A stretch of 64,000 nucleotides of DNA from Thermoleophilaceae bacterium (GTDB lineage Bacteria; Actinomycetota; Thermoleophilia; Solirubrobacterales; Thermoleophilaceae): positions 1 through 64,000 of the forward strand of contig JAICJV010000005.1 of assembly GCA_025928265.1 (NCBI GenBank). The letters are read 5' to 3'. A program made the translations under genes and the position numbers. Position 1 is the first letter of the stretch. Each line of letters opens with the position of its first letter. Of the stretch, positions 636 through 8,108 are shown piece after piece. The notes under the pieces were generated by a model. That model was not told the DNA's origin, ran no database searches, and saw only the letters and a program-made list of their open reading frames with translations.

Positions 636-1568
636 GTGGACCTGCCCGTCGCGGGCGATCCGCGAAGCGCGCCCGAGGTGGTGGCGCTGTTCGGCCCGAC
701 GGGGATCGGCAAGACCGCGGTCGCGATCGCGCTCGCCGACCTTCTGCGAGTGCGCGGCGAGCGGCCCGTGGCGATCTCGGCGGACGCACTCCAGGTGTAC
801 CGCGGGCTGGAGGTTCTGACGGGCGCGGCGGACGCGGGTGAGCGCACGCGGCTCGAGCACCGGCTGATCGGCGTGAAGCCGGTCACGGAGACGTTCTCGG
901 TGGGCGAGTTCGCGCCGCTCGCGCACGCGGAGATCGATCGCGCGCTCGCCGAGGGGAGGCGCCCGATCGTGGTGGGCGGCACCGGGCTGTATCTGCGCGC
1001 CGCGCTCACCGACATGGACCTGAAGCCGCCCCCGCCCGCCGGGCTGCGCGAGCGGATCGAGGCGCGCGCGGCGGCCCAGGGGGTCGAGGCGCTGCACGCC
1101 GAGCTGCGCGCGCTCGCGCCCGCCGTGGCCGCCACGATCGAGCCGAGCGACCGCAGCCGCGTTATACGCGCGCTCGAGCTGTCGGAGCTGGGCGAGCTCA
1201 CCGACCCGCCCGGGGAGTCGCAGCTCTGGACGTCGGACGTGCGGCGGCCGACGGTGCTGTTCGGCCTCGTGATGGAGCGCGACGAGCTCTACCGGCGGAT
1301 CGACGTGCGCGTGGACCGGATGGTGGCCGCAGGCGCCGCCGACGAGGTGCGCGCTGCCGACGCGGCCGGGGCATCCCCGACCGCGCGCAAGGCACTGGGG
1401 TTCGAGGATCTCCTCACCGGGGACGTGGAGGCGATGAAGCGGCGCACCCGCAACTACGCCAAGCGGCAGCTCACCTGGATGCGCAAGCTCGCGGGCGTGC
1501 GCACGATCGACGTGACCGGCCGCAGCGCGCTGGAGGTGGCCACCGGGATGCTGGCGGCGCTCGAATGA
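636..1568 (+). CDS. miaA: tRNA dimethylallyltransferase
   Basis: MiaA transfers a dimethylallyl group from DMAPP to N6 of A37 of tRNA, providing the substrate for MiaB encoded immediately upstream. At 310 residues it has the usual length. The P-loop GPTGIGKT lies at residues 20-27, a ADALQVYRGL segment matches the family DS(M)QVYRG region (here A-D-A, slightly divergent), and GGTGLYLRA is the DMAPP/tRNA-site motif near residue 118. The C-terminal NYAKRQLTWMRKL is the typical tRNA-contact helix. The start is a GTG 2 bases after the miaB stop; no strong Shine-Dalgarno is needed if translation is coupled. The stop overlaps the next ATG (ATGA). Confidence 0.95.
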   Translation: MDLPVAGDPRSAPEVVALFGPTGIGKTAVAIALADLLRVRGERPVAISADALQVYRGLEVLTGAADAGERTRLEHRLIGVKPVTETFSVGEFAPLAHAEIDRALAEGRRPIVVGGTGLYLRAALTDMDLKPPPPAGLRERIEARAAAQGVEALHAELRALAPAVAATIEPSDRSRVIRALELSELGELTDPPGESQLWTSDVRRPTVLFGLVMERDELYRRIDVRVDRMVAAGAADEVRAADAAGASPTARKALGFEDLLTGDVEAMKRRTRNYAKRQLTWMRKLAGVRTIDVTGRSALEVATGMLAALE

Positions 1569-2152
1569 CGACGGCGCGCAAGGCCACGCACAAGGACGTG
1601 CCGGCGATCGTCGAGTCGCTCGCGCGTGCGTTCTACGACGACCCGGTCTTCAAGTGGCTCTTCCCGGACGACGACAGGCGGCTCGGGCAATCGCGCCGCT
1701 ACTTCGCGGGGCGCGCCCACAGCCTGCTGCGGCAGGACGAGACGTACACCGCCGACGGCGGCATCGCGTCGGCGATGTGGGCGCGCCCGAACGAATGGCA
1801 CGACCCGCCGCTCGACGTGGTGCGCCAGTTCGTCACGCTGATCCCGGCACTCGGCCGCCGCATCCCGCGCTCGCTCCAGGGCCTGCGCGCGATCGAGGAG
1901 CGCCACCCGAAGAAGCCGCACTGGTACCTGGCCGTCCTCGGCACGCACCCGGATCGGCAGGGGCAGGGCATCGGGTCGGCGCTGCTTCAGCCGGTGCTCG
2001 ACGACTGCGACCGCCTCGAGATACCCGCGTACCTCGAGACGGGCACGGAACGGAACGTCGCGTTCTACACCCGCCATGGATTCAAGGTGACGGAGGAGAT
2101 CCAGCTGCCAGGCGGCCCGCCGATGTGGCTGATGTGGCGCGATCCGAAGTAG
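1565..2152 (+). CDS. GNAT-family N-acetyltransferase
   Basis: A 195-residue acetyl-CoA-dependent acyltransferase of the GNAT fold; the substrate cannot be read from sequence. The acetyl-CoA loop is visible as HPDRQGQGIGSALL around residues 127-140, preceded by WYLAVLGT (beta4) and followed by YLETGTERNVAFYTRHGFKV, the conserved beta5/alpha4 region. It starts with ATG overlapping the miaA stop by 4 bases, so it is translationally coupled to the tRNA-modification genes, although a functional link is not evident. The N-terminal 100 residues match the long-form GNATs often found in actinobacteria. Confidence 0.85.
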   Translation: MTTARKATHKDVPAIVESLARAFYDDPVFKWLFPDDDRRLGQSRRYFAGRAHSLLRQDETYTADGGIASAMWARPNEWHDPPLDVVRQFVTLIPALGRRIPRSLQGLRAIEERHPKKPHWYLAVLGTHPDRQGQGIGSALLQPVLDDCDRLEIPAYLETGTERNVAFYTRHGFKVTEEIQLPGGPPMWLMWRDPK

Positions 2153-2180: not shown

Positions 2181-3020
2181 TTGGGACCGCGTTTCGAGAA
2201 ATGGCAAGCCTTGGGGAATGACTACGTCATCTTCGAGGCGGACGACCTTCCGTTCGAGCTCACGCCGCCTCGCATCCGGCGCATCTGCGAGCCGCACATG
2301 GGCGTCGGGTCGGACGGCATCCTGCTCCTGGCGAAGCCGGCCGAGCGCGGCTTCGTCGCGAGCCTGAAGATCTTCAACCCGGATGGCTCGGAGGCCGAGC
2401 TGTCGGGCAACGGCGCGCGCGAGGCGATCATGTACCTGCGCCTGCGCGGCTGGACCGACTCCGACACGTTCTCGATCGAGACGGCAGCCGGCGAGATCCG
2501 GCCGACCATCACCGGGCCGGACACGTGCCGGGTGGACATGGGCCGGGCGAAGCTCACGTCGAAGGATTTCCCCTCGGGGGATGACGACGGGATCGGCACG
2601 GTCGGGGAGTGGACCTTCCAGCACGTGTCGATCGGCAACCCGCAGTGCTCGATCGAGGTCGCTGACGGCCTCGAGGGGCTCGAGCTGGACGTGATCGGCC
2701 CGCCGATCGAGGCGAGTGACCTGTTCCCGAATCGCACGAACGTGTCGTTCTGGCGGCGCGACTCGGACAACGAGATCACCGCGCGGATCTTCGAGCGGGG
2801 CGTGGGCGAGACGCTGTCGTCCGGCACCGGCGCCACCGGCGCCGCAGTCGCGTTCGTGCTGCGCGGCGGCGAGAGCCCGGTCACCGTGCACCTCGACGGC
2901 GGCGACCTGGAGGTGGGGGTGGGCGAGGATCTCCACGTGGACCTGACCGGCTGGGCGCGCCCCGTCTATACCGCGTCCCTCAGCGACGTATTTGCGAAGG
3001 AGCTGAATGAGATCGAGTAG
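2181..3020 (+). CDS. dapF: Diaminopimelate epimerase family protein lacking both catalytic cysteines
   Basis: The 279-residue protein follows the DapF fold along its length: FEKWQALGNDYVIFE at the N-terminus, PHMGVGSDGILLL, FNPDGSEAELSGNGAR, VSIGNPQC, and IFERGVGETLSSGTGATGAA. In the family, DapF interconverts LL- and meso-diaminopimelate by a two-base mechanism in which the thiols of the CGNG and CGTG motifs act as the acid/base pair. Here both cysteines are serine (Ser75, codon TCG at 2403; Ser214, codon TCC at 2820). The surrounding substrate-binding residues are kept and nothing suggests decay. The TTG start is the only in-frame option near the conserved N-terminus. It overlaps the following DapL-like aminotransferase by 14 bases, so a role in DAP metabolism is likely, but its chemistry is open. 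Confidence 0.85.
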   Translation: MGPRFEKWQALGNDYVIFEADDLPFELTPPRIRRICEPHMGVGSDGILLLAKPAERGFVASLKIFNPDGSEAELSGNGAREAIMYLRLRGWTDSDTFSIETAAGEIRPTITGPDTCRVDMGRAKLTSKDFPSGDDDGIGTVGEWTFQHVSIGNPQCSIEVADGLEGLELDVIGPPIEASDLFPNRTNVSFWRRDSDNEITARIFERGVGETLSSGTGATGAAVAFVLRGGESPVTVHLDGGDLEVGVGEDLHVDLTGWARPVYTASLSDVFAKELNEIE

Positions 3021-4173
3021 GCGCCTCGAGCGCATCCCGCCGTACCTGTTCGCGCAGCTCGAGCGCAAGATCGCCGAGAAGAAGGCGCAGGGGATCGACG
3101 TGATCAGCCTCGGCATCGGCGATCCGGACACGCCGACCCCGCCGTTCGTGATCGATGCGCTCGCTGACGCGGCCCGCGACCCGGGGACGCACCGGTACCC
3201 GTCCAACCGCGGGCGCCCGGAGTTCCGCGAGGCCGTCGCCGCGTTCTACGAGCGTCGCTTCGGCGTCGGGCTCGACCCGGCCACCGAGATCATGCCGGGG
3301 CTCGGCGCGAAGGAGACGATCTTCAACCTGAACCTCGCCTTCCTCGATCCGGGCGACGCCGCGCTGGCGGCTGACCCCGGCTATCCGGTCTACACGGGCG
3401 GGCCGCTGCTCGTGGGCGCGGATCCCGTGCTCATGCCGCTGCTGCCCGAGCGCGGCTTCGTGCCGGACCTCGAGGCGATCCCGGCAGCCGATCTCGAACG
3501 CGCGCGGCTGATCTACCTGAACTACCCGAACAACCCGACCGGCGCGGTGGTGCCCGACGGCTTCTTCGAGCAGGTCGTGGACTTCGCGCGCGAGAACGAC
3601 GTGCTGGTGGTGCACGACGCGTCATACACCGAGACCACATTCGACGGCTACGTGGCGCCGAGCTTCCTCGCCACGCCGGGCGCGAAGGAGGTCGGCGTCG
3701 AGGTCTTCTCGCTGTCGAAGGGCTACAACATGACCGGCTGGCGAACGGCCGCGATCGTGGGCAACGCGGATGCCGTCGAGCACTACTGGCGCCTCAAGAC
3801 GAACATCGACTCGGGCATGTTCGACGCCGTGCAGCTCGCGGCAGTCGCCGCCTTGTCGCCCGAGGGGGATGTCGCCGCGCGCGAGATGGCCGAGGTCTAC
3901 CAGCGCCGCCGCGACCTGGTGGTGGGCGCGCTGCGCGAGATCGGCGTGGACGTGACGCCGCCCAAGGGCACGATCTACGTCTGGGCGCCGGTGCCGGAGG
4001 GCCACACCTCGGAGTCGTACTGCGAGATGGTGCTCGAGGAGTCGGCGGTCGTGGTCTCGCCCGGCGGCGCGTACGGGCCGAATGGCGCGGGCTTCTTCCG
4101 CATCTCGCTCACGATTGACGACGCGCGGTTGTCGGAGGCGGTCGAGCGGCTGCGCTCGAGTCTGGGAGGCTGA
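3007..4173 (+). CDS. dapL: LL-diaminopimelate aminotransferase-like PLP enzyme
   Basis: Class I/II aminotransferase of 388 residues, closest in pattern to DapL, which converts tetrahydrodipicolinate plus glutamate directly to LL-DAP. Visible features: RLERIPPYLFAQLERKI at the N-terminus, SLGIGDPDTPTP, the YPNNPTGAV block around residue 175 with the PLP-stacking tyrosine region, and the Schiff-base lysine Lys238 in SLSKGYNMTGWR. The next conserved arginine is in FFRISLT near the C-terminus. It overlaps the end of dapF, its expected pathway partner, which strengthens the DapL reading over a general aspartate or alanine aminotransferase. The stop shares one base with the next ATG. Confidence 0.8.
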   Translation: MRSSRRLERIPPYLFAQLERKIAEKKAQGIDVISLGIGDPDTPTPPFVIDALADAARDPGTHRYPSNRGRPEFREAVAAFYERRFGVGLDPATEIMPGLGAKETIFNLNLAFLDPGDAALAADPGYPVYTGGPLLVGADPVLMPLLPERGFVPDLEAIPAADLERARLIYLNYPNNPTGAVVPDGFFEQVVDFARENDVLVVHDASYTETTFDGYVAPSFLATPGAKEVGVEVFSLSKGYNMTGWRTAAIVGNADAVEHYWRLKTNIDSGMFDAVQLAAVAALSPEGDVAAREMAEVYQRRRDLVVGALREIGVDVTPPKGTIYVWAPVPEGHTSESYCEMVLEESAVVVSPGGAYGPNGAGFFRISLTIDDARLSEAVERLRSSLGG

Positions 4174-5374: not shown

Positions 5375-6342
5375 GCGCTCTGCGAAAGCGTCTCGCGCAG
5401 GCCCGCGTCCAGGTCGCGCGGCGCGTAGCCGAGTTCGCGGCGGGCCTTGTCGTCCCTGGCCCAGTAGGTGACTCCGTCGGATGCGGAGATCAGCTCCCTG
5501 AAGTTCGGCGGGAAGCCCATGAGCTTCCCCAGCACCGGTCCGGCGGGAGCCACGAGCTTCATCACCGACGTCGGCATCTCACGCTTGGGCGGCTTGCGGT
5601 CGGCGATCTTCGCGACGTTCTCCACCAGTTCGCGCATCGTCGCGATCTGGCCGCCGATCACGTACGACTCGCCGACCCGGCCCTTGTCGAGCGCGAGCAG
5701 CACGCCGGTGGCGACGTCGTCGACGTGCACGAGGTTCAGGCCCATCTCGGCGAACGGCAGCGCCATGAGCTTGCCTGTCCGGGTCTGGTCGATCACGTTG
5801 CCGATCTCGGAGTGGTCGCCGGGCCCGTAGACGGCGCCGGGCTGGACGATCACGATCGGCGCGCCCTTCGCGATCCGCTCCTCTGCCGCCTCGTGAGCCA
5901 ACCACTTCGTCTCGTCGTACACCGACACCCAGTCGCCGGGCTCGCGCTGATAGCCCTCGTCGACGACCTCGCCCTTCGTGTTGCCGAAGACGTTGATGGT
6001 CGAGACGTAGACGATCTTGTCGACGCCCGCCTGCCAGGCGGCATCCAGCACGCGCTCGGTCCCGCGCACGTTGGCGTCGTGCATGGCCTCGCGCTCGCTC
6101 TTAGGGATGCCGACCTTGTAGACCGCCGCGCCGTGGATGGCGGCGTCGCAGTCCTCGCAGGCGTCGCGGATGACGTCGCTCGACGAGAGGTCGCCCTCCA
6201 CGATCGTGCAGCCGAGACCCCGGAGGTCGCGCGCCTTGTCCGGCGACCGGACCAGGGCCACCACGTCGTCGCCGCGCTCGCGCAGGTGGCGGACGACGTG
6301 TCCGCCGATGAATCCCGTTCCTCCGGTGACGAAGACCTTCAC
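5371..6342 (-). CDS. NAD(P)-dependent epimerase/dehydratase (extended SDR)
   Basis: A 323-residue extended short-chain dehydrogenase. The N-terminal VFVTGGTGFIGGHVVRHL contains the TGxxGxxG dinucleotide-binding motif, IHGAAVYKVG follows the third strand, and the catalytic YxxxK is YDETKW around residues 142-147 with the serine of VYVST upstream. The GTG at 6342 is chosen because the Rossmann strand begins at once; the frame stays open far upstream but that stretch is antisense to hflX. Related proteins act on nucleotide sugars, flavonols or hopanoid side chains (HpnA); the residues after the active site do not let me choose. It is divergent from hflX, 24 bases apart. Confidence 0.85.
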   Translation of the reverse strand: MKVFVTGGTGFIGGHVVRHLRERGDDVVALVRSPDKARDLRGLGCTIVEGDLSSSDVIRDACEDCDAAIHGAAVYKVGIPKSEREAMHDANVRGTERVLDAAWQAGVDKIVYVSTINVFGNTKGEVVDEGYQREPGDWVSVYDETKWLAHEAAEERIAKGAPIVIVQPGAVYGPGDHSEIGNVIDQTRTGKLMALPFAEMGLNLVHVDDVATGVLLALDKGRVGESYVIGGQIATMRELVENVAKIADRKPPKREMPTSVMKLVAPAGPVLGKLMGFPPNFRELISASDGVTYWARDDKARRELGYAPRDLDAGLRETLSQSA

Positions 6343-6353
6343 GCCGCGGACCC

Positions 6354-6359
6354 TACACT
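6354..6359 (+). promoter_or_regulatory. Candidate -10 for a leaderless hflX transcript
   Basis: TACACT in the 24-base divergent gap between the epimerase gene and hflX matches the actinobacterial -10 pattern TAnnnT. It ends 7 bases before the GTG of hflX, which has no Shine-Dalgarno, so transcription would start at or next to the GTG. No -35 can be asserted. Confidence 0.35.
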
Positions 6360-6366
6360 GACACGA

Positions 6367-7683
6367 GTGCAACAGGGACGTAACGGACGCGCCGCAGAAA
6401 GCCGCTACGGCGAGGGCATCCGCAACCCCCGTGCGCGCCAGCGCGCGTTCTGCATCGCGGTGTCGCCGGGCGAGCCGGACCTGGCTGAACTGCGCGAGCT
6501 TCTGCGCACAGCCGGCGTCGCCGTGGCGGGCGAGATGACCCAGCGCCGGGCGCAGCCGGACCCCGATCGCTACTTCGGCAAGGGCAAGCTCGGCGAGCTG
6601 AAGCAGGCGGTCAAGGAGGCGGACGCGAACCTCGTGGCCTGCGACGACGAGCTGAGCCCGCGGCAGGAACGCAACCTCGAGCAGGAGCTGGGCGTGCCGG
6701 TCATCGACCGCACCGCGGTGATCCTCGACATCTTCGCCGACCACGCCAAGTCGGCCGAGGGCAACCTCCAGGTCGAGCTCGCGCAGCTCGAGTACAACCT
6801 CGCGCGCATGCGCGGCCTGTGGACGCACCTCGAGCGCCTCGGCGGTGGCATCGGCACGAGGGGCCCGGGCGAGTCGCAGATCGAGACCGACCGCCGGCTC
6901 GCCCGCGACCGGATCGCCGCGCTTCGCCGCCGGCTCGAGCGCACGAAGGCCACCCGCAACGTCATGCGAGCCGAACGCGAGCGCGCGCACCTGCCGACCG
7001 TTGCCCTCGCCGGCTACACGAACGCCGGCAAGTCGACGCTCCTGAACGCCGTGACCGGGGCCGATGCCGAGGTGCGCGACCGGCTCTTCCACACGCTCGA
7101 CCCGCTCACGCGATCGTTCGAGATCTCGGGCCGCCAGTACCTCCTCACCGACACGGTCGGCTTCATCCGCAAGCTGCCGCACCAGCTCGTCGAGGCATTC
7201 GCGGCCACGCTCGAGGAGGCGCTGTACGCCGACCTGATCCTCCACGTCGCCGACGCGTCGGCACCCGAGGACGAGCTGGCCGACATGCTGTCGGCAGTCG
7301 ACGACGTCCTCGCCGAGATCGGCGCCGCCGAGCGCCCGCGGCTGCTCGTGCTCAACAAGATCGACCTGCTCGATGAGGACCGCCGCCGCGAGCTCTCGTT
7401 CCGCCATCCGCGCGCCGTGCAGGTGAGCGCCGTGACGGGGGAGGGAGTCGACGAGCTGCGCGACGCGATCGAGGCGCGCTTCCTCGCCACGCTGCAACCG
7501 ATGGACCTGCTCGTCCCCTACGAGGAGGGCGGCAGCCTGTCGGAGCTGCACGACCTCGCGGGCGAGATGGAGCGCGAGGACACCGCGAGTGGCGTACGGG
7601 TTCGCGCGCGCGTGCCCGCCGGGGTGGCGCCGCGCTTCGAGCGCTTCTCGGTGAACGGGCGCAACGGCGACGCCGGCGAGTGA
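6367..7683 (+). CDS. hflX: GTPase HflX
   Basis: HflX is a ribosome-associated GTPase that splits stalled or heat-damaged 70S ribosomes. The 438-residue protein has the HflX N-domain with GKGKLGELK and DELSPRQERNLE, then the family signature RMRGLWTHLERLGGGIG-TRGPGESQIETDRR, and a G domain with G1 GYTNAGKS at about residues 216-223, G3 DTVGF and G4 NKID. The GTG start is used because conserved sequence begins within 20 codons and the gap to the divergent gene leaves no room upstream. Its stop overlaps the GTG of dut (GTGA), so dut is coupled to it. Confidence 0.95.
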   Translation: MQQGRNGRAAESRYGEGIRNPRARQRAFCIAVSPGEPDLAELRELLRTAGVAVAGEMTQRRAQPDPDRYFGKGKLGELKQAVKEADANLVACDDELSPRQERNLEQELGVPVIDRTAVILDIFADHAKSAEGNLQVELAQLEYNLARMRGLWTHLERLGGGIGTRGPGESQIETDRRLARDRIAALRRRLERTKATRNVMRAERERAHLPTVALAGYTNAGKSTLLNAVTGADAEVRDRLFHTLDPLTRSFEISGRQYLLTDTVGFIRKLPHQLVEAFAATLEEALYADLILHVADASAPEDELADMLSAVDDVLAEIGAAERPRLLVLNKIDLLDEDRRRELSFRHPRAVQVSAVTGEGVDELRDAIEARFLATLQPMDLLVPYEEGGSLSELHDLAGEMEREDTASGVRVRARVPAGVAPRFERFSVNGRNGDAGE

Positions 7684-8108
7684 GGTTCACCCGGCTGTCC
7701 GAGGCGGCGAGCGCCCCGTCGCGCGCGCATCCCGGCGACGCCGGCTACGACCTGCGCGCGGCCGAGGCGGCGCGACTCGGCCCGGGCGAGCGCGCGTCCG
7801 TCGGGACCGGCATCGCCGTCGAGATCCCCGAGGGCTGGGCGGGCCTGGTACTGCCGCGCAGCGGGCTGGCCGCTCGCCACGGCATCGCACTCGTGAACGC
7901 GCCCGGCCTGATCGACGCCGGCTACCGCGGCGAGGTGCGCGTGCTGTTGCTCAACACCGATCGTGAGAATTCGTTCGAGATCGCGCCCGGGGATCGGATT
8001 GCTCAGCTGGTGCTCGTGCGGCACGAGGCCCCGGAGCTCGAGGAGGTCGATTCGCTCGAGGAGACGGTCAGGGGCGCCGGCGGATTCGGGTCGACGGGAG
8101 TCGGCTGA
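7680..8108 (+). CDS. dut: Deoxyuridine 5'-triphosphate nucleotidohydrolase
   Basis: Trimeric dUTPase hydrolysing dUTP to dUMP, which keeps uracil out of DNA and feeds thymidylate synthesis. All five motifs are present in 142 residues: HPGDAGYDL (1), PRSGLAARHG (2), GLIDAGYRGE (3, with the catalytic Asp), GDRIAQLVLV (4) and the C-terminal lid GAGGFGSTG (5). The start is a GTG that overlaps the hflX stop by 4 bases. A hairpin follows 20 bases after the stop. Confidence 0.95.
   Translation: MRFTRLSEAASAPSRAHPGDAGYDLRAAEAARLGPGERASVGTGIAVEIPEGWAGLVLPRSGLAARHGIALVNAPGLIDAGYRGEVRVLLLNTDRENSFEIAPGDRIAQLVLVRHEAPELEEVDSLEETVRGAGGFGSTGVG

What the first reader, a model, noticed from the sequence alone, without database searches (positions are those of the whole stretch)
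2181..3020. DapF-family protein with serine at both catalytic cysteine positions
The CGNG and CGTG motifs read SGNG (Ser75) and SGTG (Ser214), while the rest of the active-site sequence is intact. Known DapF chemistry needs both thiols. It is directly followed by and overlaps a DapL-like gene whose product LL-DAP would need DapF to become meso-DAP. Related PLP-independent racemases include Ser-containing members with altered or retained activity, so this may be a distinct mechanism, a different reaction, or a ligand-binding protein.
Basis: partly seen in the sequence, partly recalled or inferred. Interest (0 to 1): 0.72.

Follow-up and report, generated by a model that had tools for sequence, protein, structure and literature searches.

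The report
Natural two-serine diaminopimelate epimerase (DapF)
A cell-wall enzyme that textbooks say needs two cysteines carries two serines instead throughout a whole bacterial order that still makes the enzyme's product, so nature appears to have swapped its catalytic groups several times, a claim a simple enzyme assay could test.

Summary
The ORF at 2181-3020 is a full-length DapF homologue (TIGR00652, 190 bits; cut-off 115) with Ser75 and Ser214 where DapF has its two catalytic cysteines. One correction: a third active-site residue is also changed, since the GNPH histidine reads Gln155. It is not a local error. All 109 homologues read across the window's order are Ser/Ser/Gln, using both serine codon families, and dN/dS is about 0.12. 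The gene is the positional orthologue of dapF (miaA-dapF-dapL-hflX), and it is the only DapF found in these genomes. LysA is present in all genomes tested, MurE is of the DAP type where readable, and DAP dehydrogenase is absent from 148 of 151. Published chemotaxonomy gives meso-DAP as diagnostic of the order Solirubrobacterales. Ser/Ser pairs appear in four separated DapF lineages, and Ser/Cys and Cys/Ser forms twice each, among otherwise Cys/Cys DapFs. Best explanation: a working DAP epimerase that uses serine in place of cysteine for proton transfer. A different reaction or a dead binding protein is unlikely, but no activity has been measured. I rate it a new variant of a known kind. No description of a natural Ser/Ser DapF was found in the searchable literature.

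The parts
2181..3020 (+). dapF homologue with serine at both catalytic cysteine positions (279 aa, TTG start)
   Evidence: AlphaFold2 model pLDDT 95.9; best PDB fold matches are DAP epimerases
2403..2405 (+). Ser75 codon TCG (DapF Cys73 position), directly before helix 76-88
2820..2822 (+). Ser214 codon TCC (DapF Cys217 position), directly before helix 215-227
2643..2645 (+). Gln155 codon CAG (histidine in nearly all other DapFs, GNPH)
2793..2798 (+). Glu205-Arg206, conserved substrate and catalytic pair
3007..4173 (+). dapL, LL-diaminopimelate aminotransferase (NF006756 over cut-off), overlapping dapF by 14 bases
636..1568 (+). miaA, conserved upstream neighbour of dapF across the phylum
1565..2152 (+). 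GNAT acetyltransferase between miaA and dapF, present only in some relatives
5725..7683 (+). ORF containing the hflX homologue, conserved downstream neighbour (followed by dut at 7680-8108)
   Evidence: by synteny with tblastn matches, no family search run on this ORF

Best explanation
The gene encodes the clade's only DAP epimerase, converting the LL-DAP made by the neighbouring DapL into meso-DAP for MurE and LysA. SHOWN: fold; orthologous position; conservation of the DAP-binding residues; both serines directly before (at the N-termini of) the two opposed helices where DapF has its catalytic cysteines; purifying selection; absence of any second DapF in most genomes and of DAP dehydrogenase in nearly all. 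INFERRED: LL-DAP binds in the closed cleft with its alpha-carboxylate held by the helix N-termini. One serine hydroxyl(ate), helped by the helix dipole and invariant Glu205, removes the alpha proton, and the opposite serine re-protonates the planar intermediate. [quoted passage not shown]
For: Sequence and family. Sole homologue: the own genome has one PF01678 gene (but the genome is only 73% complete); 97 of 97 high-quality genomes of the order have a homologue, nearly always one. Clade-wide: 109 of 109 read are Ser/Ser, with both TCN and AGY codons at both sites; dN/dS about 0.12 against the nearest relative. Orthology: the miaB-miaA-dapF-dapL-hflX/dut order is shared by Cys/Cys, Ser/Cys, Cys/Ser and Ser/Ser lineages. 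Pathway: LysA over cut-off in all 41 Thermoleophilia Ser/Ser genomes tested (36 of the order, 5 of family f8); DAP dehydrogenase over cut-off in 0 of 66, and its C-terminal domain in only 3 of 151 genomes of the order; MurE with the DNPR motif in all 18 order/f8 genomes where the motif could be read. [quoted passage not shown] The cultured Conexibacter arvalis (L037) has the Ser/Ser gene, and one single-contig 6.4 Mb genome (G090/L029) matches the published size of C. woesei. Convergence: four separated Ser/Ser groups plus single-Ser forms. Other Ser/Ser dapF genes lie beside lysA or dapL. Precedent: a Ser/Cys hydroxyproline epimerase is active (PMC4113996). Structure.
Against: No activity has been measured for any natural Ser/Ser DapF in what I could search. 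Artificial Cys-to-Ser mutants lose nearly all activity (PddB below 0.1%, with similar results cited for Mycobacterium DapF, PMC8225329; HisR, PMC11602996). The order also lacks the catalytic histidine. The known natural Ser precedent keeps one Cys. The window's own DAP isomer is unknown, and the taxonomic tie of the genomes to Solirubrobacterales rests on named loci among the hits.
Confidence: 0.8

Rival explanations
1. Same reaction, different base: the serines only position the substrate or relay protons, and another group (Glu205, or the order-specific Glu/Gln81 or a water) acts as one of the two bases.
For: Glu205 is invariant in the alignment. In the order, position 81 on the first active-site helix is Glu or Gln (Cys or Met in most Cys/Cys forms) and His155 is Gln. 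Reference work names a His/Glu pair as essential (PMC5885031).
Against: Position 81 is Ile in the other large Ser/Ser lineages, and their histidine is kept, so there is no common replacement base. Serine is strictly retained at both sites, with codon-family switches.
Confidence: 0.2
2. Changed reaction: an elimination or a racemisation of another amino acid, with meso-DAP supplied by an unknown enzyme.
For: Ser/Thr members of the proline racemase superfamily are dehydratases (PMC4113996). DapF-fold enzymes also act on histidine, O-ureidoserine or Dab (PMC11602996, PMC8225329).
Against: Orthologous locus beside dapL, conserved DAP-binding residues, LysA and MurE present, no DAP dehydrogenase or second DapF in nearly all genomes, and meso-DAP in the order.
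Confidence: 0.08
3. Catalytically dead ligand-binding or regulatory protein.
For: Loss of both thiols and of the histidine.
Against: It is the only DapF in organisms that make meso-DAP, and E205, R206 and all ligand residues are kept. Dead enzymes would not be expected to hold serine specifically through TCN/AGY changes.
Confidence: 0.04
4. Sequencing error, local mutation or pseudogene.
For: The window comes from a 144-contig, 73% complete genome.
Against: 109 of 109 relatives agree, including named isolates; dN/dS about 0.12.
Confidence: 0.01

Closest known systems
Diaminopimelate epimerase DapF (TIGR00652; H. influenzae Cys73/Cys217, C. glutamicum Cys83/Cys221)
   Same: Fold (TM about 0.85), substrate-binding residues, gene neighbourhood, pathway context
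   Different: Both catalytic cysteines are serine and the GNPH histidine is glutamine. It therefore cannot form the redox-switch disulfide described for C. glutamicum (PMC5296763).
Ser/Cys 4-hydroxyproline 2-epimerase B9JQV3 (proline racemase superfamily, PMC4113996)
   Same: Serine replaces the first catalytic cysteine and two-base epimerisation is kept
   Different: Different family and substrate; it keeps the second cysteine
Ser/Thr trans-3-hydroxyproline dehydratase B9K4G4 (PMC4113996)
   Same: No active-site cysteine
   Different: Characterised as a dehydratase, with Thr not Ser on the second face; different family
Ser-mutants of DapF (PDB 2q9h C73S, 2q9j C217S)
   Same: Same residue swap, one at a time, same fold
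   Different: Laboratory mutants made for structural work; no adapted background

Membership tests
DapF (diaminopimelate epimerase) | DapF sequence model over its curated cut-off | tested here: met
   TIGR00652, 190.5 bits against 114.65
DapF (diaminopimelate epimerase) | Two-domain DapF fold with two opposed active-site helices | tested here: met
   AlphaFold2 model and Foldseek against the PDB
DapF (diaminopimelate epimerase) | Two catalytic cysteines / PROSITE signature with Cys | tested here: not met
   Ser75 and Ser214; the PROSITE pattern matches only with Ser in place of Cys
DapF (diaminopimelate epimerase) | Catalytic His and Glu | tested here: not met
   Glu205 present; His is Gln155 in all 109 order members
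DapF (diaminopimelate epimerase) | DAP-binding residues (Asn/Arg set) | tested here: met
   N13, N66, N77, N153, N187, E205, R206 invariant in 56 sequences
DapF (diaminopimelate epimerase) | Pathway context: DapL, LysA, DAP-type MurE, meso-DAP wall | tested here: met
   meso-DAP from PMC3035278. MurE below cut-off in the window's own incomplete genome
DapF (diaminopimelate epimerase) | LL-DAP to meso-DAP epimerase activity | not testable with these tools
   needs an enzyme assay
Bifunctional DapF/glutamate racemase (NF038284) | Score over the model's cut-off | tested here: not met
   54 bits against 350

The most novel reading that the evidence does not exclude
A thiol-free amino-acid epimerase: two serines carry out both proton transfers at an unactivated amino-acid alpha carbon. 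The change evolved independently in about four DapF lineages and sustains all meso-DAP synthesis in a bacterial order, which would contradict the rule that DapF chemistry needs two thiols.
Probability: 0.6. Interest if true: 0.78.

Novelty: new variant of a known kind. Interest (0 to 1): 0.64.

Why it matters
DapF is a standard model for how an enzyme pulls a proton from an unactivated amino acid, explained by a special thiolate/thiol pair, and it is a drug target whose covalent inhibitors attack the cysteines. A natural, repeatedly evolved Ser/Ser form that is the only epimerase in living bacteria gives a direct test of whether thiols are required. It also means DapF genes without cysteines should not be annotated as inactive, and it predicts epimerases immune to oxidation and to thiol-directed inhibitors.

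Tried and rejected
Second canonical DapF: none in the own genome; nearly all relatives have a single copy. DAP dehydrogenase bypass: 0 of 66 over cut-off; DAPDH_C in 3 of 151, all one genus. Surrogate cysteine: Cys36, Cys116 and Cys156 are common in the order but none is invariant there, and Cys156 is also common in Cys/Cys forms. Link between Ser and DapL: rejected, since Cys/Cys DapFs sit in the same locus. Ser/Ser as a general feature of Bacteroidota, Bacillota or Planctomycetota: rejected, since random samples gave 50 of 51, 33 of 33 and 35 of 35 Cys/Cys, the single Ser/Ser being the sampling centre itself; the Ser/Ser clade there is patchy. Single origin of all Ser/Ser: not supported; the tree needs 4 changes and 0% of bootstrap trees have one, although gain versus loss inside Thermoleophilia cannot be told apart. 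Literature searches for natural Ser DapF found none. Active-site distances could not be measured because the model's coordinates are not exposed.

Full report
OBSERVATION. The ORF at 2181-3020 on the + strand (TTG start, 279 aa) is a full-length DapF: TIGR00652 scores 190.5 bits against a cut-off of 114.65, Pfam DAP_epimerase matches both halves, and its nearest solved relatives are DAP epimerases. At the two catalytic cysteine positions it has Ser75 (TCG) and Ser214 (TCC). The PROSITE signature for DapF, as quoted in PMC8225329, fails only at the cysteine. The gene overlaps dapL by 14 bases. One point in the finding needs correcting: the conserved histidine of GNPH is also changed, to Gln155, so the active site differs at three residues, not two.

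NOT LOCAL. In the window's order, 147 of 151 genomes (97 of 97 high-quality ones) hold a homologue, nearly always one. I read 109 of them: all 109 are Ser/Ser, all have Gln at 155 and all keep Glu-Arg-Gly. Both serine codon families occur at both sites (Ser75: 107 TCN, 2 AGY; Ser214: 93 TCN, 16 AGY). Cysteine is one base away from TCC/TCT and AGC/AGT codons, yet no reversion is seen. dN/dS against the nearest relative is about 0.12. Named carriers include Conexibacter arvalis and other Conexibacter isolates.

ORTHOLOGY. Flank analysis shows the order miaB-miaA-dapF-dapL-hflX-dut not only around Ser/Ser genes but also around Cys/Cys genes of other Thermoleophilia families and other classes of the phylum, and around Ser/Cys and Cys/Ser genes. 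The Ser/Ser gene therefore sits in the ancestral dapF slot and is not a repurposed extra copy.

PHYLOGENY. With the two state columns removed, a careful tree of 86 proteins separates Ser/Ser into four groups: the window's order; family f8 of the same class (whose sister, with starred support, is Cys/Cys family f5); second copies in a few deep Actinomycetota families, placed beside the Cys/Cys copies of the same families; and a patchy clade with the motif KSGNGLR...TLASGSSS in Bacteroidota, Clostridia, Verrucomicrobiota, Planctomycetota, Desulfobacterota and others. Ser/Cys arises twice and Cys/Ser twice. No bootstrap tree has a single Ser/Ser group. Gain and loss cannot be told apart inside Thermoleophilia. 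In random samples of Bacteroidota, Bacillota and Planctomycetota, Cys/Cys was universal apart from the sampling centre, so the wide Ser/Ser clade is rare there; it came up because the first collection scan used the window's own peptides.

PATHWAY. In 36 genomes of the order and 5 of family f8, LysA is present over its cut-off every time. MurE was found with the DAP-type DNPR motif in all 18 of these genomes where it could be read; in the window's own incomplete genome the MurE match stays below the cut-off. DAP dehydrogenase is over cut-off in none of 66 genomes, and its C-terminal domain occurs in 3 of 151 genomes of the order, all one genus. In the wider Ser/Ser clade the gene is the only DapF in many genomes and lies beside lysA or dapL in several (L051, L058, L066, L094); some Bacillota and Desulfobacterota carry it beside a separate Cys/Cys DapF.

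STRUCTURE. The AlphaFold2 model has mean pLDDT 95.9. Helices 76-88 and 215-227 begin directly after Ser75 and Ser214, the positions used by the two cysteines of DapF. The best PDB matches are DAP epimerases, TM about 0.83-0.89, including the C73S and C217S mutants. N13, N66, N77, N153, N187, E205 and R206 are invariant in a 56-sequence alignment.

MECHANISM. Shown: scaffold, ligand residues, helix-start position of both serines, strict conservation, genetic and pathway context. Inferred: serine hydroxyl(ate)s perform the two proton transfers. The main objection is chemical. Reviews explain cysteine by its lower pKa and easier desolvation (PMC8142540), and engineered Ser mutants of related enzymes keep at most traces of activity (PMC8225329; PMC11602996). 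The main reply is that a natural Ser/Cys hydroxyproline epimerase works (PMC4113996), and that point mutants lack the compensating changes of a lineage adapted to serine. Candidate compensations are Leu or Lys for Met at 74, loss of the Cys common at 81, and Gln or Ser for Glu at 189 in three of the four Ser/Ser lineages; none is shown to matter. Only the window's order also replaces the histidine. Gln at that position also occurs in a few divergent Cys/Cys DapF-like proteins.

VERDICT. Most likely a functioning, thiol-free DAP epimerase: a new variant of a known enzyme. It meets the sequence-model, fold, ligand-residue and context criteria for DapF but fails the defining two-cysteine criterion, so I describe it as working like DapF and do not file it as a standard member. 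An enzyme assay is decisive.

Noticed in passing
L142, L151, L156 (family f31) and L181, L184, L185, L187, L190, L197 (family f6): DapF orthologues with Ser at the first and Cys at the second catalytic position, apparently intermediate forms, in two separate lineages
   Followed up: partly
L214, L264 (family f20) and L260, L266 (family f47): DapF orthologues with Cys at the first and Ser at the second catalytic position, two separate lineages of Actinomycetota
   Followed up: partly
L227-L234 (family f8, same class): Ser/Ser DapF proteins shortened to about 230-240 aa, lacking the conserved GxGSDG stretch of the N-terminal domain, still beside miaA
   Followed up: no
L201-L206 (families f23, f37): Genomes with both a Cys/Cys dapF next to miaA/dapL and a second Ser/Ser copy elsewhere with an altered NPDAS motif; role unknown
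   Followed up: no
L104, Clostridium carboxidivorans P7, and G192:C1:2465074-2465675: A Ser/Ser DapF copy broken by several stop codons beside an intact Cys/Cys DapF, so this second copy is dispensable there
   Followed up: no
L241 (G064:C165:5081-5827): A divergent Cys/Cys DapF-fold protein inside a 688-codon open frame in a genome that also has the Ser/Ser dapF
   Followed up: no
L382, L397, L398: Divergent Cys/Cys DapF-like proteins with Gln instead of the GNPH histidine (TYERGVEDET type)
   Followed up: no
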